From: Proteinivorax hydrogeniformans
GTDB lineage: Bacteria; Bacillota; Proteinivoracia; Proteinivoracales; Proteinivoracaceae
Assembly: GCF_040515995.1 (NCBI RefSeq)
Contig: NZ_CP159485.1
Coordinates: 1,736,001-1,800,000, forward strand
Direction: 5' to 3'
DNA length: 64,000 nt
The notes beneath the pieces were generated by a model. The model was not told where the DNA came from. It saw only the letters and a list, made by a program, of their open reading frames with translations, and searched no databases. A program made the position numbers and the translations under genes. Position 1 is the first letter of the stretch. Every line of letters starts with the position of its first letter. Positions 31,950 to 43,204 of the stretch are shown here, piece by piece.

Positions 31950-32801
31950 CTACTTTCGAGTGCCTCTATTTAGCTTAAGACGTAATATGTCAAAAAAGTT
32001 TTTCCCTTGTATTTTTACAACAGGGATAACATAGTCACTTAACTCTATAACCACAGTATCATAAGCATGCAGTTTGATGGATTTCTGACCATCTACAGTT
32101 AACATTACTTCCTGGTTTATATCATTTAACTTAATTTTGACTTGTGAATTATTACTAACTACCACGCTTCTTGAATGCAGAGAATGAGGACATATTGGAG
32201 AGATAACCATAGATGAGACATTTGGAGCTATAATGGGGCCCCCTGCAGAAAGGGAGTACCCAGTTGAGCCGGTGGGAGTACTGACAATAACACCATCTCC
32301 TGAGTAAGTTTCTAAAAAGACGTCATCCACATATGTACTACATTGAATTATTCTTGCTAGTGGTCCTTTTGCTATTGTTATTTCATTAAGAGCTCTAGTT
32401 TTTTCTATAACCTTACCATCTCTATATACTTTAGCAACAACCATGTCTCTATTTTCAATTGTATATTTTCCCTCATTAATTTTTAAAATAGTATCCTTTA
32501 AATCTTTTACCTCAACCTCGGTTAAAAATCCTAAGTGGCCTAGATTCACCCCTAACATGGGTATTTTATGGGTGGCGTACTTGCGAGCTATACTTAAAAA
32601 AGTCCCATCTCCGCCTAACACTAATATAAGCTCAATATTTTCCGGCAAATTTACGCTTGGGAAAACTATTGTATCTTTAATTGGAGTCTCTTCGCATGAA
32701 AAAACTTCATAACCTTTTTCCTTTAAGCTCGCCACAATATCTGTAGAGACCTTGCCGCTGCTTTCTTTGCTAGGATTTAAAAAAATTGCTATGTTTTTCA
32801 T
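31950..32801 (-). CDS. nadK: NAD kinase
   Basis: ATP- or polyphosphate-dependent phosphorylation of NAD to NADP (283 aa). GGDGT (63-67), the NE-containing ALNEITIAKG and SGDGVIVSTPTGSTGYSLSAGG are conserved. Part of the unit 169-aa protein - nadK - recN. ATG with AGAGAGG upstream. Confidence 0.96.
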   Translation of the reverse strand: MKNIAIFLNPSKESSGKVSTDIVASLKEKGYEVFSCEETPIKDTIVFPSVNLPENIELILVLGGDGTFLSIARKYATHKIPMLGVNLGHLGFLTEVEVKDLKDTILKINEGKYTIENRDMVVAKVYRDGKVIEKTRALNEITIAKGPLARIIQCSTYVDDVFLETYSGDGVIVSTPTGSTGYSLSAGGPIIAPNVSSMVISPICPHSLHSRSVVVSNNSQVKIKLNDINQEVMLTVDGQKSIKLHAYDTVVIELSDYVIPVVKIQGKNFFDILRLKLNRGTRK

Positions 32802-32819: not shown

Positions 32820-33329
32820 TTATATAACTAGCTTAGCTATTAAAAATCCGATTCCTACAAACAGTACTAGCATGGCTAATCTCAAAATATAACTTTGGTT
32901 ATCTTTTCTGATATCAACAGTACATTCTTTGACATACTTATTTTTAGTTTCTACAAAAACTATGCCATCTATATCATTATAACACGTAATAGTCTTAAGT
33001 ATTTTAACTTTAATAAAATTATCCTTTAAGGACAAGCTTCTGTTTTTAGGCATTGACTCAACTAGAAAGGCTTTCCCATCCTTTTTTACTATAGGGACGG
33101 ACTTGATAAGATCTTCAGATTTAACGTTATCCTTAAAAAAGCATATCTTTTTTGGACTACAATATCCTGAAAACTTATATCCTTTTTGCTCTAACAAATT
33201 GATGGCATAAAGTTTGGGCTTAGCTGATGTAGACCTTGATTTATAATCTTCCAATTTACTTTTAACTATAAAAAAAAACACTAAAATAACTAACGATATT
33301 AGTATGCCTACTTCCAACCTGGTCATCAT
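32820..33329 (-). CDS. Membrane protein of unknown function
   Basis: Not recognised. 169 aa with a hydrophobic segment at each end (about 7-22 and 149-168) and a basic, beta-rich middle containing three Cys. The topology would put both termini on the same side with a soluble domain between. GGGGTGA ribosome site before tandem ATGs. First gene of a unit with nadK and recN, 18 bp before nadK. Confidence 0.7.
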   Translation of the reverse strand: MMTRLEVGILISLVILVFFFIVKSKLEDYKSRSTSAKPKLYAINLLEQKGYKFSGYCSPKKICFFKDNVKSEDLIKSVPIVKKDGKAFLVESMPKNRSLSLKDNFIKVKILKTITCYNDIDGIVFVETKNKYVKECTVDIRKDNQSYILRLAMLVLFVGIGFLIAKLVI

Positions 33330-33484: not shown

Positions 33485-34283
33485 ACACGCTGCTATGAGC
33501 TAAATTAATTATCTCTTCGATAAAATCATCTTCCAACTTTTGGGGACTAGAGTTTCCACATAATAGCAAGTACTCGATATTCCCTTCAGGGCCTTTTATT
33601 GGGGAGTAATTAATATCTATAGTCCCTAAACCAATCTGCTGGGCAAAGTCTACTACTTCTTTAACTACATCAATATGCACCATTTTGTCTCGCACAACAC
33701 CTTTTTTACCAACCCTCTCTCTTCCTGCTTCGAATTGAGGTTTTATTAAAGCCATAACTTGACCATCGTCAGACAAAATTTCCTTAATCTTCGGCAGCAA
33801 AAGTTTCAGTGAAATAAAAGATGCGTCCGCAACTGCAACTTGGGGGCGTGGGTCAAACTGTTCTACCTTTACGTGCCTGAAGTTTGTTCTCTCCATATTT
33901 ACAACTCTCTCATCATTACGTAAAGACCATGCAAGTTGTCCATATCCGACATCAACTGCATACACTAGTTTTGCACTATGCTTTAATGCACAATCTGTAA
34001 AGCCTCCTGTTGACGCACCAACATCTACAATAACTTTACCATCTAACTTTAGGTTAAAAACTTTTATAGCTTTATCAAGTTTTAGTCCTCCCCTACTAAC
34101 ATAGGGGTTGTCATTACCTTTTACGGTTATTGAAATATCTGCGCTAACGTTTGCTCCTGGTTTATCCATTCTTTTTTGTTCACTAAAAACCAAACCAGCC
34201 ATTATCGCTCGCTTTGCTTTTTCACGACTATCGAAATAACCTTGTTCAACCAGTAATTGATCCAATCTTCTTTTTGTTTTCAT
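33483..34283 (-). CDS. tlyA: TlyA-family rRNA 2'-O-methyltransferase
   Basis: 266-aa protein: N-terminal S4 RNA-binding domain (KRRLDQLLVEQGYFDSREKA) and a FtsJ-like SAM methyltransferase domain (VIVDVGASTGGFTDCAL; DASFISLKLLLP). Members methylate cytidines of 16S/23S rRNA. Overlaps the 3' end of dxs by 38 bp, a common dxs-tlyA coupling. Last gene of the long operon carrying OLE RNA. Confidence 0.93.
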   Translation of the reverse strand: MKTKRRLDQLLVEQGYFDSREKAKRAIMAGLVFSEQKRMDKPGANVSADISITVKGNDNPYVSRGGLKLDKAIKVFNLKLDGKVIVDVGASTGGFTDCALKHSAKLVYAVDVGYGQLAWSLRNDERVVNMERTNFRHVKVEQFDPRPQVAVADASFISLKLLLPKIKEILSDDGQVMALIKPQFEAGRERVGKKGVVRDKMVHIDVVKEVVDFAQQIGLGTIDINYSPIKGPEGNIEYLLLCGNSSPQKLEDDFIEEIINLAHSSV

Positions 34284-36168
34284 AACTATAATCCTTTGTC
34301 ACTATTTTTTTTGCTTTAGCAAATATATCATCACATGACAGACCGTACCGTTTCAATATTTCACTTCTAGTGCCTTGGGGTATAAACTCATCTGGTAGGG
34401 CAGCGTGGTTTATGTCTGCCTTTATCCCTTTAGAAGACAATAAATTAGTAATTAAGCTAGCTAATCCTCCAATAGCGGTATGTTCCTCCACTATTAAAAC
34501 CTTTGACTCGCTATCAATATGCCTATATAGCATGTCCTCATCTAAGGGCTTAATAAATGGCAAGTGCAACAGTGTAGCGTCAATTCCTTCCTGTTTTAAC
34601 ATATCTACTACTTTTAAGCAGCTGTTAGTAGTCACCCCAGAAGAAACAATAACAATATCATCTCCTTCAGCTAAAGGTTTCCCTTTACCTACAGCCATTT
34701 TTTTATACTCCTTATCGCGGTCATTAACTTCTGGTAAGTTAGCTTTTGGGTAACGTATCGCCACCGGACAGTTTAAGCTAAAGGCTGTAAATAAGCTGTC
34801 TTTAAGTTCTTTATCATCTCTTGGAGCAATTATTTTCATATTAGGTATATGGCTTAAAAACGAAATGTCAAATACACCCTGATGTGTTTCACCATCTGCT
34901 CCTACAATGCCTGCTCGATCTATAGCAAACACCACAGGTAGGTTTTGAAGACATACGTCATGGAGTACTTGATCATATCCTCTTTGTAAAAAAGTTGAAT
35001 ATACTGCAAAGATAGGTTTTTGGCCATCTGCAGCTAAACCAGCTGCCATGGTAACTGCATGTTGTTCTGCTATCCCTACATCATAAAAACGTTGAGGGAA
35101 CTTATTAGCAAATTTAGATAACCCTGTTCCACTTACCATTGCAGCTGATATAGCAACTATTTTGTCATCTTCCTGAGCCAAGTCACACAACGCCTCACTA
35201 AACCCATCAGTAAATGACTTTTGTTTTTTCTTCAGCGGCAAACCTGTTTCTTTATCAAAAGGAGCAACTCCATGGAATTTATCGGGAGTTTTTTCCGCCG
35301 GCAAAAAACCTTTCCCTTTTTTAGTAATTACATGTACCAAAACTGGACCTGATGTTTTCTTTGCCTGCTGCAATACTTCTTCTAACTTATAAAAATCATG
35401 GCCATCTATGGGACCTATATAAGTAAAACCTAACTCTTCAAAGAGAAGCCCCGCTACCATCATATACTTAACGCTATCTTTAACCCTATCTAAAGACTTA
35501 TAAAGAGTGCCACCAATGGCAGGCACCTTTTTTAATAAATACTGTACATCTTCTTTAGTTTTTGTGTACTTAGGATCGGTACGCACTCTGCTAAGATAAG
35601 AGGATAACCCGCCTACATTCTCACCTATTGACATCTCGTTGTCGTTTAGCACAACTGTTAAGTCTGTATTCTGCTTATGTCCACAGTGATTTAGCGCCTC
35701 AAATGCCATTCCACCTGTCATAGCTCCATCCCCAATTACCGCAACTACATTATTACTATCACCTTTTAAGTCTCGAGATAGAGCCATGCCTAAAGCTGCT
35801 GAAATAGAAGTACTGCTATGACCAGTGTTAAAGTGGTCATGTTTACTCTCAGCTGTTTTAGGAAACCCACTTAGACCATCTAGCTGTCTTAAAGCATTAA
35901 ACTCATTCTTTCTACCTGTTAATATTTTATGTACATAACTTTGATGTCCTACATCCCATACAATTTTATCTGAAGTAGTGCTAAATACTCTATGCAATGC
36001 TATAGTTAACTCAACTACACCTAAATTGGGCGCTAGATGACCTCCTGTCTTGGAGGTGGCATCTACTAAAAACTCCCTAATTTCCTTTGCCAAATTCTTA
36101 AGCTCTTTCTTAGGCAGTTTTTTTACATCTTCAGGAGTATCGATTTTATCTAGTATAGTACCCACCAT
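34246..36168 (-). CDS. dxs: 1-deoxy-D-xylulose-5-phosphate synthase
   Basis: First enzyme of the MEP isoprenoid pathway: pyruvate + glyceraldehyde 3-phosphate to DXP (640 aa). TPP motif VIGDGAMTGGMAFEALNH with NDN following, the conserved VGHQSYVHKILTGR, and DRAGIVGADGETHQG are present. ATG at 36168 preferred, with AAAGGAAAG upstream, over a GTG two codons earlier that abuts it. Downstream of oapA, upstream of tlyA; ispA in the same operon supplies the next isoprenoid step. Confidence 0.97.
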   Translation of the reverse strand: MVGTILDKIDTPEDVKKLPKKELKNLAKEIREFLVDATSKTGGHLAPNLGVVELTIALHRVFSTTSDKIVWDVGHQSYVHKILTGRKNEFNALRQLDGLSGFPKTAESKHDHFNTGHSSTSISAALGMALSRDLKGDSNNVVAVIGDGAMTGGMAFEALNHCGHKQNTDLTVVLNDNEMSIGENVGGLSSYLSRVRTDPKYTKTKEDVQYLLKKVPAIGGTLYKSLDRVKDSVKYMMVAGLLFEELGFTYIGPIDGHDFYKLEEVLQQAKKTSGPVLVHVITKKGKGFLPAEKTPDKFHGVAPFDKETGLPLKKKQKSFTDGFSEALCDLAQEDDKIVAISAAMVSGTGLSKFANKFPQRFYDVGIAEQHAVTMAAGLAADGQKPIFAVYSTFLQRGYDQVLHDVCLQNLPVVFAIDRAGIVGADGETHQGVFDISFLSHIPNMKIIAPRDDKELKDSLFTAFSLNCPVAIRYPKANLPEVNDRDKEYKKMAVGKGKPLAEGDDIVIVSSGVTTNSCLKVVDMLKQEGIDATLLHLPFIKPLDEDMLYRHIDSESKVLIVEEHTAIGGLASLITNLLSSKGIKADINHAALPDEFIPQGTRSEILKRYGLSCDDIFAKAKKIVTKDYSYENKKKIGSITG

Positions 36169-36170
36169 TA

Positions 36171-36731
36171 TCACTTTCCTTTTCCATTTTTTTTGCTTTT
36201 AAAAAACTCCACCCGAAATATCTTTTCAATATAGTATATCACTTTTCCTACATACATCAAAATTTCAGTTGAATTATGAATAGCTAATGTTTTTCCTATT
36301 CCTTTCCCTCCAACTGTCAAGGCTGCTACTAGAGCTGTCAGCATAACATTAACAGCCTGAGTTTCGCCTCCATTAACGAGAATAAACACTATAACAGTTG
36401 CGGCTCCCCCACTTATAATACCACTAATATCACCCACTACATCGTTAAAAAAAGTCGCTACCTGTTCAGCATTCCTTATCAATCGCAATGCTTGTTTCGC
36501 ACCTTTTACCCTCTTTGCTGATTTTGCTGCTAATGGAGGAATCTTAGCAGCTGTTGTCGCTACCCCTATGGTGTCGAAAAGAACACCTAAAAAAATTATG
36601 CTAAATAACAATAAAAAAGCCGTAACCAATCCAACATTCCCTAAAATAATTTGAGAAATAATTGAAATAATTACCGCCAATACAAATGTCCATAACGAGA
36701 TTTTTGCTATCCAGAGGTTATTTTTAACCAT
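36171..36731 (-). CDS. oapA: OLE RNA-associated membrane protein OapA
   Basis: 186-aa membrane protein with about four hydrophobic segments (about 10-32, 35-56, 103-122, 125-140) and a strongly basic, Ala-rich stretch between them (AAKSAKRVKGAKQALRLIRN) suited to RNA contact. Identification rests on position: OapA is encoded directly after the OLE RNA and before dxs in OLE-bearing genomes, and size and topology fit. Known work places OapA with OLE at the membrane, affecting alcohol, cold and Mg2+ stress; the GVATTAAKIPPL region recalls CNNM/CorC-type membrane domains. Its TGA sits 2 nt before the dxs ATG. Confidence 0.85.
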   Translation of the reverse strand: MVKNNLWIAKISLWTFVLAVIISIISQIILGNVGLVTAFLLLFSIIFLGVLFDTIGVATTAAKIPPLAAKSAKRVKGAKQALRLIRNAEQVATFFNDVVGDISGIISGGAATVIVFILVNGGETQAVNVMLTALVAALTVGGKGIGKTLAIHNSTEILMYVGKVIYYIEKIFRVEFFKSKKNGKGK

Positions 36732-36755
36732 TTTCCACTCCTAAATTATGTAGTC

Positions 36756-37362
36756 TATGGTGGTAGCAAATCAGAGTAAATGCTGCGGCTTAGGTCTAGC
36801 AGGTTTTCCCAGAAAGCTACCACTCGTCACCGAGCGGGCGGTTTCCCTTTAAAGCTTTCTCTGCTTTGTCACCAAAAGCAGGGCTAGATTACCACTTAGT
36901 CCGCACTTTAATCCCCTGATTACCTCTATAAAGAACAGTCTAGGAGTTTTCCTCAACAAAACTAACATTACCCTAGCCTCTTTTGCAACGTTGGTTTCAA
37001 GTAAAAGTTTTTCAAAGTAGGCCTACTTTGAAAAACTTTTCTATAACTATCCACCAACACCACTCAAGGCAGGCTACACTGTACACAGCTCCTGTTTTCG
37101 GGTGAAACCGCATACAGGTTCTTTCCTAAGACGTAGTCGATGTGCTCCCATCCATCACACAACACCACGCACTTTAGGTCTCCACGGAAAAGGGGTCAAC
37201 GCCTACATGCCCTTGCAGATCGCCCCTATATCCTTAACTCCCAGCATCAGCCCCCAACGGGGCGTCGGCAGCCAACACCAGAAACTTCATCGATGTGCCC
37301 TTAACGGATTTTTAGGCCCGCCTTTGGATAACGTGTTTTGACTAGAATACTGTACCACCATA
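36756..37362 (-). ncRNA. ole: OLE (ornate, large, extremophilic) RNA
   Basis: A 677-bp gap without a credible gene lies between the DUF212 gene and oapA. Within it, TATGGTGGTA (36756-36765) and TACCACCATA (37353-37362) form a perfect 10-bp terminal stem enclosing about 607 nt, the known OLE size (about 610 nt). The interval is GC-richer than flanking DNA and full of local hairpins, including a CCGNNNCGG-type stem with GTGAAA loop near 37100 and a 38-nt palindrome. The context ispA - OLE - oapA - dxs is the published OLE locus. No ORF in the gap has a ribosome site. A TATAAT-rich palindrome (37372-37385) just upstream could be its own promoter, though read-through from ispA/DUF212 is also possible. 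Confidence 0.9.
37003..37040. repeat. 38-bp perfect palindrome inside OLE RNA
   Basis: Two 19-nt arms with no spacer, centred on AGGCCT (left arm begins AAAAGTTTTTC). In RNA it would form a hairpin of about 17 bp, apparently an expanded variable stem of OLE. Confidence 0.85.
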
Positions 37363-37409
37363 TACAATTTATTATTATATAATAACATTTTCTTAACAAA
37401 TAATCAACT

Positions 37410-37844
37410 TTAGAATAAATAAGGGATTATTAAACCCAAAAGGGCTCCTGCTAATACTTCAATAGGAGTATGCCCTAAAAGTTCCTTTAATCGTTCCCTT
37501 TCATCAGATATGGTGTTACCTTTTTGCATCTCATCAATTATTTTGTTTAATATTTTAGCTTGTCTGCCCGCCGCTCTTCTAACTCCTGCAGCATCATACA
37601 TGATAACAAGTGCAAAAGCCAAAGACAAGGCAACAATCGGTGAATCCCATCCAAAGTCTTTAGCTAAAACAGATGTCAGAGCCATAACAAATGCAGAATG
37701 AGAACTTGGCATACCACCAGAGCCCACAAATCTATTAAGATCCATTTTTTGAGTTAGCAATACCTCTAAAACAACCTTAATGGTTTGTGCCACAGCCCAA
37801 GCTAAAACCGGAACAAGAAAATATTTATTTTGAAAAAGTTCCAC
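37410..37844 (-). CDS. Divergent PAP2 family protein (DUF212, YuiD-like)
   Basis: 144-aa membrane protein with GGMPSSHSAFV and YDAAGVRRAAGRQA, remnants of the acid-phosphatase/vanadium-haloperoxidase motifs that define DUF212. Three or four hydrophobic segments. Probably acts on a lipid (poly)phosphate, consistent with the adjacent prenyl-diphosphate synthase, but the substrate is unproven. 11 bp downstream of ispA and immediately upstream of OLE RNA. Confidence 0.88.
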   Translation of the reverse strand: MELFQNKYFLVPVLAWAVAQTIKVVLEVLLTQKMDLNRFVGSGGMPSSHSAFVMALTSVLAKDFGWDSPIVALSLAFALVIMYDAAGVRRAAGRQAKILNKIIDEMQKGNTISDERERLKELLGHTPIEVLAGALLGLIIPYLF

Positions 37845-37855
37845 TTATAATCCTC

Positions 37856-38731
37856 CTAAGCCTTTCTGTTCAGCAGGTAAGTCAAAAGCTGAGGTAGGTA
37901 AGGTACCTTTATATCATTATCCTCAAGTTCTTTGATCCCCTGTTGCACGTGCTCCTTAGCCATTAGTTTAGCTTTATCTAAACCATGTAAAGTGACATAT
38001 GTTGACTTGGACAATTTTTCATCACTTCCAACAGCCTTGCCCAAACTTTCAAAGCTACCACATACATCCAATATATCATCTGTAATTTGAAAAGCCATGC
38101 CAAAATGGTCCCCGTAACTATACAAGGCCTCTGCTGTTTCTTTATCTAACTTAGATAAAGATGCTGCCATTTTCAAAGGAGCTGTAAGTAGTTTTCCAGT
38201 TTTGTATCTATGTACATCGGCTAGCTGACTACTAGTTAGTTGTTTTTCTTCCCCTTCAATATCAAGAATTTGCCCCTTTATCATTCCGGTTATCCCGGCG
38301 CTGACGGACAACTCTTTAATTAACTTTACCTGTATTTTTGGATCTATGCCTTCTAAGTTTGATAAAATTTCAAAGGCAGTATTTAAGATGCCATCTCCTG
38401 CTAATATCGCAATAGCTTCTCCAAAGACTTTATGGTTTGTTGGTTTACCTCTTCTAAAATCATCATCATCCATAGCGGGAAGATCATCATGAATTAGAGA
38501 GTATGTATGAATATACTCAATAGAACAAGCTACCGGCAGCGATAACTCTCTACTTACCTTATAATGATCACATACCATTAGAAGTAGTGCAGGTCTTATC
38601 CTTTTTCCACCAGCTTTTAAAGAATACTCCATGGATTCCTTTAGTTTTGGGGGGCAATTTTCGGGTATAAACCTTGTGATATTGTTATCTATAATTTCTT
38701 TGTACTGAGCTAACCCTTGTTTTAAATCCAT
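37856..38731 (-). CDS. ispA: Farnesyl/geranyl diphosphate synthase
   Basis: Short-chain polyprenyl synthase (291 aa) condensing IPP with DMAPP/GPP. The first Asp-rich motif DDLPAMDDDDFRRG (82-95) and second DDILD (near 216) are intact; GGKRIRP binds IPP. The ATG directly follows the xseB stop. Part of the xseA-xseB-ispA-dxs operon typical of Firmicutes. Confidence 0.95.
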   Translation of the reverse strand: MDLKQGLAQYKEIIDNNITRFIPENCPPKLKESMEYSLKAGGKRIRPALLLMVCDHYKVSRELSLPVACSIEYIHTYSLIHDDLPAMDDDDFRRGKPTNHKVFGEAIAILAGDGILNTAFEILSNLEGIDPKIQVKLIKELSVSAGITGMIKGQILDIEGEEKQLTSSQLADVHRYKTGKLLTAPLKMAASLSKLDKETAEALYSYGDHFGMAFQITDDILDVCGSFESLGKAVGSDEKLSKSTYVTLHGLDKAKLMAKEHVQQGIKELEDNDIKVPYLPQLLTYLLNRKA

Positions 38732-38929
38732 CTACTCTTCCTCCTTAAATTCCTCAAGTTGAACCTTTTTTATTTTTTGTTCCGCTCCCTTAATTTTGCT
38801 TTGACAAACCTTTAGTAATTCCATCCCTCTTTCATATTTCTCTAACGCTTCTTCTAAATCTAGGTTTCCTTCTTCTAAACTGTTAACGATTTTCTCTAGT
38901 TCTAAATATGCTTGTTCAAACTTTTTCAC
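38732..38929 (-). CDS. xseB: Exodeoxyribonuclease VII small subunit
   Basis: 65-aa helical subunit (FEQAYLELEKIVNSLEEGNLDLEEALEKYERG is diagnostic in outline) that multimerises on XseA. Overlaps xseA by 14 bp and abuts ispA. Confidence 0.94.
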   Translation of the reverse strand: MKKFEQAYLELEKIVNSLEEGNLDLEEALEKYERGMELLKVCQSKIKGAEQKIKKVQLEEFKEEE

Positions 38930-40127
38930 CAGGTATCACCTCTTTTACATTACACTTTAGCTTTCCATCTTGTAATTCTATGCTAACATCATCACCGGTT
39001 TGAACCTTCTTAATAGAGTTTATCAATCTCCGTTCTTTTTTTAGAACTGAATATCCGCGAGCAAACACGTTTTTAGGCGATAATGATTGAAGTCTAAATG
39101 CTAAGTTTTCAACACTACCTTCTTTTTTTTCAACATAATATTTGAACTCATGGCTTAGTTGCCTAGAGACAGTATCGAGGTTTTGGTAGTATTGGTCTAA
39201 TATTGTTTCCGGTCTTTTTAAGATATTACGCTGCTTTATTTGTTTAACCTTTTCTGAAGAGTACTCTAATAAACCTACCACCTTCGAATCTAGCCTTTTT
39301 CTTAGATAATCTAAATCATCATTTAGTTCTTCCATGGAAGGAACGGCTTTTTGAGCTGCTGCAGTGGGAGTAACCGCACGAAAGTCAGCTACAAAATCAG
39401 CTATCGTAAAATCAGTCTCATGCCCCACGCCTGTTATTATTGGTTTTTTGCAGTTATAGATTGCTCTTGCTACAATTTCCTCATTAAATGCCCACAAATC
39501 CTCTATACTGCCGCCTCCTCGCGCTAAGATTATGGTATCTACATCTAGACTTTCCATCAACTTAATGGCTTGCTCTAGCTGGTACTTGGCCTTATCTCCC
39601 TGTACTAAGCATGGACAGACGACAACCTCTACACTGGGAAGCCTAGATGATAAGGTCTTTAAGATGTCCTCTTGTGCTGCAGATCCCTCTCCTGTAATCA
39701 CACCCAGTTTTTGTGGGAAAAGAGGGATAGGCCTTTTCCTTTCTACAGAGAAAAGACCTTCCTTTTCAAGTTCTTTTTTCAATTCTTCAAACTTTAAGTG
39801 CAAGTTTCCTGCGCCAACCTGTTCCATTTTTTGAACATATAGTTGGTACTTACCGCTTTTTTTATAAACATCTATTTTACCACGTACAATTACATTTTGA
39901 CCGTTTTTTGGCACAAAATTAAGGCTCCTATTAGCGTAGCGAAACATTACTGTAGGCACTAAACTATCCTTATCTTTTAGCGAGAAGTAAAAATGCCCCG
40001 AACGAATATGATTGCTAAAATTTGAAATTTCTCCTTCAACATAAACATCTCTTAACGCTGGTTGAATTGTAATTGATTGTTGTACTAAGTCTGTTAGTTC
40101 TGATACGCTAATGGGCGTAAAATCCAA
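38916..40127 (-). CDS. xseA: Exodeoxyribonuclease VII large subunit
   Basis: 403-aa catalytic subunit: N-terminal OB fold (VYVEGEISNFSNHIRSGHFYFSLKD), central nuclease domain (GVITGEGSAAQEDIL, ILARGGGSIEDLWAFNEE, GVGHETDFTIAD) and a coiled-coil C-terminal part. TTG start with GGAGAGG 7 nt upstream; starts 3 bp after folD. Confidence 0.96.
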   Translation of the reverse strand: MDFTPISVSELTDLVQQSITIQPALRDVYVEGEISNFSNHIRSGHFYFSLKDKDSLVPTVMFRYANRSLNFVPKNGQNVIVRGKIDVYKKSGKYQLYVQKMEQVGAGNLHLKFEELKKELEKEGLFSVERKRPIPLFPQKLGVITGEGSAAQEDILKTLSSRLPSVEVVVCPCLVQGDKAKYQLEQAIKLMESLDVDTIILARGGGSIEDLWAFNEEIVARAIYNCKKPIITGVGHETDFTIADFVADFRAVTPTAAAQKAVPSMEELNDDLDYLRKRLDSKVVGLLEYSSEKVKQIKQRNILKRPETILDQYYQNLDTVSRQLSHEFKYYVEKKEGSVENLAFRLQSLSPKNVFARGYSVLKKERRLINSIKKVQTGDDVSIELQDGKLKCNVKEVIPGEKV

Positions 40128-40998: not shown

Positions 40999-42387
40999 CT
41001 AGTTGTTTTTTATATACTTATCTATGCTTTCAGCACACTTCTTTCCAGCCCCCATCGCTTGAATAACTGTGGCAGCACCGGTAACTACATCCCCACCGGC
41101 AAAAACCCCTTCAATAGATGTCTGGCCAGTTTTACTATCTACTTCGATATTCCCCCTTTTACTTATAGTCAACTCTTTAGTAGACCTTGGTATTATTGGG
41201 TTTGGGCCCTGCCCAATCGCCATAATAACCGTATCCACTTCCAACATATATTCAGAACCCTTTATGGGTTTAGGGCGACGACGTCCTGAGTCATCAGGCT
41301 CACCAAGCTCCATTTTGATACATTTAAGCCCATTTACCCAGCCACCATCATTGCCCTCTATAGAGACGGGATTGGTCAGTAAATTCATTTCAATCCCCTC
41401 TTCTCTAGCATGTAGAACTTCTTCCTGTCTTGCAGGCATCTCCTTTTCTGACCTTCTATACACTATGGACACTTTCTTTGCTCCCAATCTCTTAGCTGTT
41501 CTAGCGGCATCCATCGCTACATTTCCTGCCCCAACGACCGCCACATTGTCACCTACCCTCAAAGGAGTCTCCCACTTAGGGTAAAGGTAAGCTTTCATTA
41601 GGTTAGCTCTAGTTAAAAATTCATTAGCAGAGTAGACCCCATTTAGGTTTTCACCAGGAATATTAAGAAAATATGGCAGGCCTGCTCCTGATCCAATAAA
41701 TACCGCCTCATACCCTCTTTCTAAAAGCTCGATAACGGTAATCGTCTGGCCTATAACTACATTTGTCTTAATTTCTGCTCCCATTTCAACAAGCTGGTTA
41801 ATCTCTTGTTCCACTATATTTTTAGGAAGTCTAAACTCTGGAATTCCATACATCAAGACTCCCCCTGGTTTATGAAAAGCTTCAAAGATTGTAACTTGAT
41901 AACCTCGTTTTAACAGTTCTGAGGCACAAGCTAGCCCTGCTGGGCCTGATCCAACAACAGCTACCTTTTTCTCTCCTAAACTTGCTTTTTTGACCACACT
42001 ATTTTTGTGGTAATCAGCTACAAATCGCTCCAGCCTGCCAATTCCCACTGGTTCATTCTTCTTGCCTACTATGCATAACTTTTCGCACTGATCCTCTTGA
42101 GGACAAACTCTTCCGCAAATAGCTGGTAAAGAATTTTTTTCTTTAAGCTTAGCTAACGCACCTTCAAAATCTTCACTTGCTATTTCCTTAATAAATTCTG
42201 GAATGTCAATCCCCACTGGACAACCTTGTACGCACAGGGGATTTTTACACTGCAAACACCTTTTTGCCTCTAAAGTCGCTGCTTCTTTATCATAACCCAA
42301 AGCCACCTCATCAAAGTTTGTTATCCTTTTATCAGGGTCTTGGTTGGGCATGGGATTTTTCTTATTCAATTTAGCATTCACCCCCAC
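40999..42387 (-). CDS. nfnB: NADH-dependent reduced ferredoxin:NADP oxidoreductase, subunit B
   Basis: 462-aa flavoprotein homologous to the glutamate synthase small subunit. N-terminal Cys motifs (CLQCKNPLCVQGCP; CGRVCPQEDQCEKLC) bind two [4Fe-4S] clusters; GSGPAGLACASELLKRG binds FAD; VVGAGNVAMDAARTAKRLGA binds NAD(P). Directly linked to nfnA (17-bp overlap), which makes NfnAB transhydrogenase more likely than a glutamate synthase, as no large subunit is nearby. Electron bifurcation would couple ferredoxin reduced by VOR to NADPH production. GTG start; a GTG two codons on is equally plausible. Confidence 0.9.
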   Translation of the reverse strand: MGVNAKLNKKNPMPNQDPDKRITNFDEVALGYDKEAATLEAKRCLQCKNPLCVQGCPVGIDIPEFIKEIASEDFEGALAKLKEKNSLPAICGRVCPQEDQCEKLCIVGKKNEPVGIGRLERFVADYHKNSVVKKASLGEKKVAVVGSGPAGLACASELLKRGYQVTIFEAFHKPGGVLMYGIPEFRLPKNIVEQEINQLVEMGAEIKTNVVIGQTITVIELLERGYEAVFIGSGAGLPYFLNIPGENLNGVYSANEFLTRANLMKAYLYPKWETPLRVGDNVAVVGAGNVAMDAARTAKRLGAKKVSIVYRRSEKEMPARQEEVLHAREEGIEMNLLTNPVSIEGNDGGWVNGLKCIKMELGEPDDSGRRRPKPIKGSEYMLEVDTVIMAIGQGPNPIIPRSTKELTISKRGNIEVDSKTGQTSIEGVFAGGDVVTGAATVIQAMGAGKKCAESIDKYIKNN

Positions 42388-43204
42388 ATTGACAGCCTGT
42401 AACCTTTTGCTCTTCCTCGCGATACATTCTTAACCTACGCATCTGTTCGTCAAAGTCTACTTTCAGACCATCAAAAGAAGGTCCATCTATACAAGCAAAC
42501 TTCACCTCATTACCTATGGTTACTCTACATCCACCACACATACCAGTTCCATCTACCATCAGAGAATTTAAGCTAACAGTTGTAGGAATATTAAATTCCT
42601 TTGTAATGTCACAAACAGCCTTCATCATTGGAAGTGGCCCTACAGCGATAACACCATCTATCTGTACGCTATCATCTGTTATCAATTCTTTTAAGATGTC
42701 TGTTACGAAACCTTTATGACCAACACTTCCATCGTCTGTTGCAATATGTAGTTCATCACAGACTTTACCCATCTCTTCTTCATAGAATAAAACCTCTTTG
42801 CTTCTGCCTCCTAAAATCCCTTTCACTTGTTTACCTTGCTTATGCAAAGCTTTTGCTTCAGGATAGATTGGTGCTATTCCAACACCACCACCTATGCAGA
42901 CATAATTTTTACCTTCAGGAGGAGTAGTAGGTACCCCTAAAGGTCCAACAAAGTCTAATATTTTATCTCCAACTTCTAATTTACCCAATCTTTTAGTTGT
43001 GTTTCCAACCTCTTGAAAAATTATCGTTACAGTCCCATTTTCCCGATTAAAGTCAGCTATCGTTAATGGAATTCTCTCACCCTTTTCATGAATCCGCAAT
43101 ATCACAAACTGACCAGCTTCAGCCTTTGCAGCTATGTCTGGATTATCTATAACATACTTCTTTATAGATGGTGAAAGTACTTCCTTAAGTACTATAGTAT
43201 TCAT
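42371..43204 (-). CDS. nfnA: NADH-dependent reduced ferredoxin:NADP oxidoreductase, subunit A
   Basis: 277-aa ferredoxin-NADP-reductase-like protein: FAD/NAD domains with RIPLTIADF and YVCIGGGVGIAPIYPEAK, and a C-terminal [2Fe-2S] site with an Asp/Cys ligand set (DGTGMCGGCRVTIG ... FACIDGP), as in NfnA/dihydroorotate dehydrogenase electron-transfer subunits. ATG behind AAGGAGG. First gene of the long operon running to tlyA. Confidence 0.9.
   Translation of the reverse strand: MNTIVLKEVLSPSIKKYVIDNPDIAAKAEAGQFVILRIHEKGERIPLTIADFNRENGTVTIIFQEVGNTTKRLGKLEVGDKILDFVGPLGVPTTPPEGKNYVCIGGGVGIAPIYPEAKALHKQGKQVKGILGGRSKEVLFYEEEMGKVCDELHIATDDGSVGHKGFVTDILKELITDDSVQIDGVIAVGPLPMMKAVCDITKEFNIPTTVSLNSLMVDGTGMCGGCRVTIGNEVKFACIDGPSFDGLKVDFDEQMRRLRMYREEEQKVTGCQCGGEC

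What the first reader, a model, noticed from the sequence alone, without database searches (positions are those of the whole stretch)
36171..37362. OLE RNA with its partner gene oapA in an isoprenoid/folate/NfnAB operon
A gene-free, structured ~607-nt interval closed by a perfect 10-bp terminal pairing lies between DUF212/ispA and a four-helix basic membrane protein gene followed by dxs. Size, orientation and neighbours match the published OLE locus. Here the operon also begins with electron-bifurcating nfnAB, linking this membrane RNP to a redox operon.
Basis: partly seen in the sequence, partly recalled or inferred. Interest (0 to 1): 0.8.

Follow-up and report, generated by a model that had tools for sequence, protein, structure and literature searches.

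The report
OLE RNA and its membrane partner
The stretch encodes OLE, a large structured bacterial RNA of still unknown function, next to the gene of its membrane partner protein OapA; the pair likely works as a stress- and magnesium-handling particle in the membrane, and it is a new member of a known class rather than something new.

Summary
The finding is right in its core. Rfam's OLE model matches window 36744-37374 (minus) end to end: 530.8 bits, E 1.7e-153, single copy in the genome. The gene 36171-36731 is OapA: 549 relatives, one (48% identical) from Halalkalibacterium halodurans, a predicted fold nearest CNNM, and no other CNNM-family match in the genome. Candidate OapB, OapC and bS21 genes are present. 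The host is a Proteinivorax (inferred). This is a new member of a known class.

What I add: (1) NfnAB upstream of ole is real and widespread (47 of 83 comparable genomes, 17 families), but nfnAB sits in the same operon in six genomes without detected OLE, four of them with the dxs end visible. The redox link thus belongs to the operon, not specifically to OLE. (2) A sigma-A-type promoter with extended -10 precedes ole in 71 of 94 non-redundant loci. (3) P3, proposed in print to cross the membrane, covaries and has a nearly fixed length (15 bp here). (4) ArgR, a reported OLE partner, has no above-cutoff match in the 13 class genomes, all with OLE. (5) The CCUCC ribosome mimic is absent here.

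The parts
36744..37374 (-). ole gene: OLE RNA, full length (model positions 1-616 of 616)
   Evidence: cmscan RF01071 530.8 bits, E 1.7e-153; only OLE match in the genome
37353..37362 (-). P1 5' arm, perfect 10-bp terminal helix with 36756-36765
   Evidence: sequence; pairing over 114 sequences
36756..36765 (-). P1 3' arm
   Evidence: sequence
37326..37340 (-). P3.1/P3 5' arm (15 nt), the helix proposed in the literature to cross the membrane
   Evidence: duplex calculation, 6+9 bp with a 2-nt bulge in the 3' arm; shown as unpaired in the Rfam model
36957..36973 (-). P3/P3.1 3' arm
37003..37040 (-). P9 apical hairpin, a perfect 38-nt palindrome centred on GGCC; P9 loops kiss in the published OLE dimer
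   Evidence: sequence; dimer contact from PMC12265935
37379..37407 (-). predicted sigma-A promoter of ole: TTGATT, 17 nt, TATTAT with extended -10 TG
   Evidence: same arrangement in 71 of 94 non-redundant ole upstream regions
36171..36731 (-). oapA, 186-aa membrane protein
   Evidence: 549 relatives, weak CNNM, predicted fold nearest MtCorB
34246..36174 (-). dxs
   Evidence: TIGR00204 811.5 bits
37410..37844 (-). DUF212 (divergent PAP2) gene
   Evidence: PF02681
37856..38731 (-). ispA, farnesyl diphosphate synthase
   Evidence: NF045485 354.8 bits, over its cut-off
38732..38929 (-). xseB-like, 65 aa
   Evidence: position and sequence only; no family model run
38916..40127 (-). xseA
   Evidence: PF02601
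40131..40988 (-). folD
   Evidence: PF02882, PF00763
40999..42387 (-). nfnB (GltA-like)
   Evidence: TIGR01316 589.6 bits, cut-off 471.75; named NfnB from its place next to nfnA
42371..43204 (-). nfnA
   Evidence: best PDB match NfnI 5jca E 2.7e-87
31950..32801 (-). nadK, NAD kinase, downstream on the same strand
   Evidence: PF20143, PF01513

Best explanation
The window encodes a full-length OLE RNA directly upstream of oapA, and the two likely form a membrane-bound RNA-protein particle that would help the cell cope with excess magnesium and other stresses. Shown here: the RNA match, its terminal, P3 and P9 pairing, the OapA gene, candidate OapB, OapC and bS21 genes, and no MpfA-type (CorC_HlyC) match in the genome. 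Inferred: ole is transcribed from its own promoter and transcription runs on into oapA; two OLE copies dimerise through the P4, P5.1/P6.1 and P9 loops as in the published cryo-EM structures; OapA, which looks like a shortened CNNM-type transporter module without CBS and CorC domains, binds next to P3; and the RNA supplies the regulatory part that MpfA proteins carry as protein domains (a published proposal). In this host the complex would be the only CNNM-type magnesium device. The NfnAB, FolD, IspA and Dxs genes share the gene run, but nothing here shows that they act with OLE.
For: OLE model 530.8 bits, single copy; P1 and P3 arms match each other far better than swapped arms; OapA relatives include Halalkalibacterium halodurans, CNNM match in 13 of 21 aligned members, predicted fold nearest MtCorB, Foldseek E 8.7e-3, TMq 0.49; only CNNM match in the genome, 0 CorC_HlyC matches; OapB candidate matches PDB 7k9b 'OLE-associated protein B' E 1.2e-4; OapC candidate matches YbxF structures E 5.3e-16; bS21 present; promoter. 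Phenotypes and partners in other species from PMC11332333, PMC12265935, PMC9723947, PMC12054373 and PMC10898510.
Against: No expression, binding or phenotype data for this organism. OapA scores below Pfam's CNNM cut-off (25.7 against 28.4 bits), and no PDB match in the fold search reached E 0.001. The OapB match is modest. OLE does not strictly replace MpfA: 11 of 30 OLE-positive genomes also have CorC_HlyC, and 5 of 22 OLE-negative genomes, G099 and G326 (both 99% complete) among them, have neither. The P6 CCUCC mimic linked to bS21 in H. halodurans is absent here.
Confidence: 0.93

Rival explanations
1. OLE here is functionally tied to redox balance: it senses or regulates NfnAB, FolD and NadK output (the NADPH pool), and the synteny reflects that tie.
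For: nfnB lies 2.5-6.3 kb upstream of ole on the same strand in 47 of 83 genomes with both rows printed, 17 families; 12 of 13 genomes of the class; more often so than in OLE-negative genomes (47 of 83 against 6 of 22, Fisher p 0.017, relatedness ignored); nadK is in the same gene run; OLE disruption impairs growth on alternative carbon sources (PMC10898510, start of abstract and passages).
Against: nfnAB sits in the same operon in 6 of 22 OLE-negative genomes, 4 of them with the dxs end also on the fetched stretch; 36 of 83 OLE-positive genomes have nfnB elsewhere or on another contig; G005 has OLE and no nfnB match at E 1e-100.
Confidence: 0.08
2. The interval is mainly a structured leader of oapA/dxs (a cis-regulator) rather than a trans-acting RNA.
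For: It directly precedes oapA, and the scan of 36000-38000 found no terminator-like site on the minus strand.
Against: In H. halodurans OLE is detected as a ~630-nt RNA, is abundant, binds several proteins and localises to the membrane (PMC9723947 passages; PMC12265935). Not tested in this organism.
Confidence: 0.03
3. The gene run is an ordinary housekeeping operon that happens to host ole; its neighbours other than oapA say nothing about OLE.
For: The same operon lacks ole and oapA in G018, G184, G099 and G326; in G099 and G326 the ispA-dxs gap holds an opposite-strand gene and no Rfam match up to E 0.1.
Against: dxs follows oapA in most of the 84 loci; PMC12265935 reports clustering of a recurring set of genes over 730 species and a link of argR to OLE.
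Confidence: 0.4

Closest known systems
OLE RNA of Halalkalibacterium halodurans (Rfam RF01071)
   Same: Full-length match, tandem oapA, a promoter of its own (predicted here), isoprenoid and sporulation neighbours, candidate OapB, OapC and bS21 genes present
   Different: No ArgR match in the genome, no CCUCC in P6, nfnAB upstream
OLE RNA of Clostridium acetobutylicum (cryo-EM dimer, PMC12286853)
   Same: A-rich P4 loop and self-complementary P9 loop are present here
   Different: Dimerisation here is inferred, not tested
MpfA/CorB/CorC magnesium transporters (CNNM + CBS + CorC_HlyC)
   Same: OapA's predicted fold is nearest MtCorB
   Different: OapA is 186 aa, below Pfam's CNNM cut-off, and no CBS or CorC_HlyC domain was reported in it
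NfnI ferredoxin:NADP oxidoreductase (PDB 5jca)
   Same: NfnA match E 2.7e-87, nfnB adjacent
   Different: Electron bifurcation not tested; NfnB was not compared with the PDB

Membership tests
OLE RNA class | Match to the OLE covariance model over its full length | tested here: met
   530.8 bits against gathering score 50, positions 1-616
OLE RNA class | oapA directly downstream | tested here: met
   12 nt between the model match and the oapA start codon
OLE RNA class | Long-range P1 and P3 helices | tested here: met
   P1 10 bp and P3+P3.1 15 bp in the window; native arms beat swapped arms
OLE RNA class | k-turn bound by OapC | not tested
   The region is aligned to the model but the k-turn was not scored
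OLE RNA class | Abundant ~600-nt RNA at the membrane | not testable with these tools
   No expression data
OapA | Sequence relative of H. halodurans OapA | tested here: met
   48% identity to a Halalkalibacterium halodurans protein recorded as hypothetical; that it is OapA is inferred
OapA | Four membrane helices with a basic cluster | tested here: met
   Predicted long helices 2-32, 35-61, 88-120, 125-152; Lys/Arg at seven of residues 70-86 (sequence). Membrane insertion is predicted, not measured
OapA | Binds OLE RNA | not testable with these tools
   Needs a binding assay
CNNM (Pfam PF01595) | Score over the curated cut-off | tested here: not met
   25.7 against 28.4 bits
MpfA/CorC | CBS pair and CorC_HlyC domain | tested here: not met
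   Only CNNM reported in OapA; no CorC_HlyC match in the genome
NfnAB | NfnA nearest to solved NfnI, nfnB adjacent | tested here: met
NfnAB | Electron bifurcation | not testable with these tools
   Needs enzymology
OapB | Relative of solved OapB | tested here: met
   7k9b E 1.2e-4 over residues 5-56; gene between map and infA by sequence
OapC | Relative of YbxF | tested here: met
   3v7e E 5.3e-16; gene between rpoC and rpsL by sequence

The most novel reading that the evidence does not exclude
In this lineage OLE-OapA is the cell's only CNNM-type magnesium exporter, a transporter whose regulatory half is RNA instead of protein: the 15-bp P3 helix, of nearly fixed length across the class, threads the bilayer beside OapA and couples RNA folding state to ion export.
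Probability: 0.2. Interest if true: 0.8.

Novelty: new member of a known kind. Interest (0 to 1): 0.33.

Why it matters
OLE's biochemical task is an open question, and clues are drawn from its neighbours and partners. This locus narrows two of them: NfnAB co-location is not OLE-specific, and ArgR appears dispensable in a class where all 13 searched genomes have OLE. It adds weight to a third: P3 is held at about 13-16 bp while its sequence changes, as a membrane-crossing helix would require (other packed helices could behave likewise). A host without an MpfA-type match is also a clean natural background for asking whether OLE-OapA handles magnesium.

Tried and rejected
Second OLE copy in the genome: none. 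Other Rfam families in the window: none at gathering score. OapB by the KOW family PF00467: two hits, which by place and length look like rplX and nusG; the candidate was then found by reading the map-infA interval. OapC looked interrupted in the family search (1 TAA), but its reading frame is an intact 83 aa; the profile match ran past the stop. OapA against PDB sequences: nothing below E 0.28, hence the fold prediction. Redox-specific link of OLE: not upheld, because of the OLE-negative operons. A hidden OLE in the ispA-dxs gap of G099 and G326: no Rfam match up to E 0.1; the gap holds an opposite-strand gene. A dedicated promoter as a new finding: already in print for B. halodurans (PMC9723947); only its breadth is added here. 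Literature on OLE with NfnAB or electron bifurcation: searches 'OLE RNA'+'NfnAB' and 'OLE RNA'+'electron bifurcation' found 0 papers in the held library; the 2023 review with the full neighbour list is not held, so nfnAB may be in it.

Limits of counts: one search uses the rows printed plus three ole rows, i.e. 153 of 284 OLE-positive and 138 of 265 nfnB-positive genomes of 398, biased to the best scores; one search ran with stricter filters that lose some weak matches. The 22 OLE-negative genomes are the nfnB-listed genomes absent from the positive rows, sorted by eye; two (G057, G240) have contigs that end before the ole slot and G240 is 75% complete. Of the 36 far genomes I fetched the nfnB side of 16, and of the 47 near genomes 20 besides the four family loci. 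The Fisher values ignore relatedness. OLE sequences were cut out with fuzzy motifs; 18 of 146 loci looked at gave none. For P3 the last 5' motif before P4 was taken, which favours short arms.

Full report
Observation. The minus-strand interval between DUF212 (37410-37844) and the gene 36171-36731 holds a full-length OLE RNA. The Rfam model RF01071 matches 37374-36744 from position 1 to 616 with 530.8 bits, E 1.7e-153. It is the only OLE match in the 2.83-Mb, one-contig genome and the only Rfam match in the window at gathering score. The Rfam structure line leaves the first 53 positions unpaired, but P1 and P3 are supported by arm-matching across sequences.

Host. OapA is 89% identical to a Proteinivorax tanatarense protein on a 3,091,218-base contig. 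G004, the searched genome of the same genus, has a contig of exactly that length. The host is therefore inferred to be a Proteinivorax; NCBI places the genus in Clostridia. No species name was given.

OapA. The 186-aa protein has 549 relatives at E <= 0.001, among them one from Halalkalibacterium halodurans at 48% identity, recorded as hypothetical. It scores 25.7 bits to CNNM, below the cut-off of 28.4; 13 of 21 aligned relatives match CNNM at E <= 0.001. The AlphaFold2 model (mean pLDDT 79.6, pTM 0.68, 21 sequences) has four long helices, and its top four PDB matches are chains of MtCorB, an archaeal CNNM (best E 8.7e-3, probability 1.00, TMq 0.49). No match passes E 0.001, so this is support, not proof. 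It agrees with the published view that OapA is related to MpfA (PMC11332333: abstract and parts 1 and 2 of 3 of its results).

Partners. OapB candidate: 85 aa between map and infA, matching PDB 7k9b 'OLE-associated protein B' at E 1.2e-4. OapC candidate: 83 aa between rpoC and rpsL, matching YbxF structures at E 5.3e-16. bS21: one match. ArgR: PF01316 has no match over the cut-off in any of the 13 class genomes (one weak match, G001), although the same search rings in 9 of 14 control genomes, 8 over the cut-off, and all 13 class genomes have OLE. PMC12265935 names oapA and argR as the only genes of the ole cluster linked to the RNP, and PMC10898510 cites pull-down and unpublished binding data for ArgR; in this class OLE would have to work without it. 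MpfA: no CorC_HlyC match in the own genome; 11 of 30 OLE-positive and 17 of 22 OLE-negative genomes examined have one (Fisher p 0.005, relatedness ignored). This agrees with the published anticorrelation, but five OLE-negative genomes have neither, G099 and G326 among them, so the two are not strict substitutes.

NfnAB. In 12 of the 13 class genomes nfnB lies 3.2-4.5 kb upstream of ole on the same strand; the thirteenth, G005, has OLE but no nfnB match at E 1e-100. In the phylum sample of 398 genomes OLE is in 284 and nfnB (E <= 1e-100) in 265. Among the 83 genomes with printed rows for both, 47 have nfnB 2.5-6.3 kb upstream on the same strand, from 17 families; 36 do not. The control goes against an OLE-specific reading. 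Of 22 OLE-negative genomes with a printed nfnB, 6 have nfnAB in the same nusB-xseA-ispA operon: G018, G184, G099 and G326, with dxs also on the stretch and no oapA match, and G057 and G240, where the contig ends before the slot. In six others folD lies within about 5 kb of nfnAB on the same strand without that operon (L171, L179, L181, L182, L186, L190). G099 and G326 belong to family f53, where G305 has OLE, oapA and nfnAB; in the first two the ispA-dxs gap holds an opposite-strand gene and no Rfam match up to E 0.1. On the OLE-positive side, 16 of the 36 far genomes were fetched; their nfnAB showed none of the operon around it beyond stray matches. NfnAB is thus a frequent member of this operon with or without OLE; it is still commoner there with OLE (47 of 83 against 6 of 22, p 0.017, relatedness ignored). 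A plausible reason for the grouping, from general knowledge, is NADPH supply near FolD and the MEP pathway.

Wider synteny. In 80 named loci fetched with the OapA alignment (the best 80 of 566, itself a capped list) plus 4 family loci, the common order is asp23-nusB-(folD)-xseA-ispA-[ole]-oapA-dxs-tlyA-recN-spoIVB-spo0A. nfnA and nfnB are both seen in L017, L053 and the four family loci, and a weaker nfnB-like match alone in L029, L033 and L068.

Promoter. Upstream of ole, TTG, a spacer of 16-18 nt and TGN-TANNNT occur in 71 of 94 non-redundant upstream regions; dinucleotide shuffles give a mean of 1.25 and a maximum of 4. The same pattern upstream of 14 neighbouring genes occurs in 10 of 648 regions, 4 of them among 14 at asp23; many of those regions are coding, so the control is imperfect. 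A looser pattern (TGN plus one mismatch to TATAAT) is in 73 of 94 at ole, shuffle mean 8, and reaches 19 of 71 at nusB. In the window it is TTGATT-17-TATTAT at 37407-37379. That ole has its own promoter in B. halodurans is in print (PMC9723947, passages); its breadth was not mentioned in the passages I saw.

P3. In the window P3 and P3.1 are 9+6 bp with a 2-nt bulge. Of 115 OLE sequences extracted, 98 were used: 1 lacked the motif, 11 were duplicates, 5 had over-long 3' segments. Native arms average -18.0 kcal/mol, arms swapped between sequences -8.6; in 79 of 98 the native pair is at least as stable as each of 10 swaps. The 5' segment is 19-21 nt in all 103 distinct sequences (mean 20.4, sd 0.56 in the 98), against mean 78.1, sd 13.6 for the P9 region of 115. 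PMC12265935 estimates ~14 bp to span the hydrophobic layer and a typical 12 bp for P3+P3.1 plus a bulge and joints; my count, which includes G-U and outermost pairs, is 13-16 in 89 of 98. A fixed length fits a membrane-crossing helix but also any tightly packed helix.

bS21 site. H. [quoted passage not shown]); taking CCUCC as its core is my choice. By a rough pattern CCUCC is in 22 of 113 P6 3' arms and not in the window. The paper's mutants M1-M3, which alter the mimic but spare the most conserved positions, still bind, so its absence does not exclude bS21 binding here.

Conclusion. This is a new, complete member of the OLE class in an inferred Proteinivorax, with candidate partner genes and without ArgR or MpfA matches. 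Sequence and homology are shown; dimerisation, membrane crossing, protein binding and magnesium handling are inferred from work on other species. Papers: PMC11332333 and PMC12265935 (abstract and named sections or parts), PMC12286853, PMC9723947, PMC12054373 and PMC10898510 (passages and starts of abstracts). The founding papers and the 2023 review were not held.

Noticed in passing
window 32820-33329: 169-aa protein without Pfam or NCBIfam match and with hydrophobic ends, between nadK and tlyA; matched in three of the four family loci (G001, G003, G004) and in none of the 80 other loci.
   Followed up: partly
window 37003-37040: The P9 hairpin is a perfect 38-nt palindrome, so two RNAs could pair beyond the GGCC loop.
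   Followed up: no
G000 and the 12 other class genomes: No ArgR match over the cut-off in any of 13 genomes of the class, although all have OLE.
   Followed up: yes
L180 4526-6457 and L187 4092-6221: In G099 and G326 the ispA-dxs gap, where ole-oapA sits in G305, is filled by an opposite-strand gene that by eye looks like a protease/FHA-type protein.
   Followed up: partly
G099, G326: Nearly complete genomes with neither an OLE nor a CorC_HlyC match: what handles magnesium there is unclear.
   Followed up: no
G004:C1:1134160-1135536: nfnB of the sister genome lies in a 741-codon open frame with one TAG inside the match; cause unknown.
   Followed up: no
G001: Same family, OLE-positive, yet three CorC_HlyC matches, while G000, G002, G003 and G004 have none.
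   Followed up: no
L029, L033, L068: A weaker nfnB-like gene (42-44%) upstream of xseA beside an M22-like gene, without a detected nfnA; one of the three records is labelled Syntrophomonadaceae.
   Followed up: no
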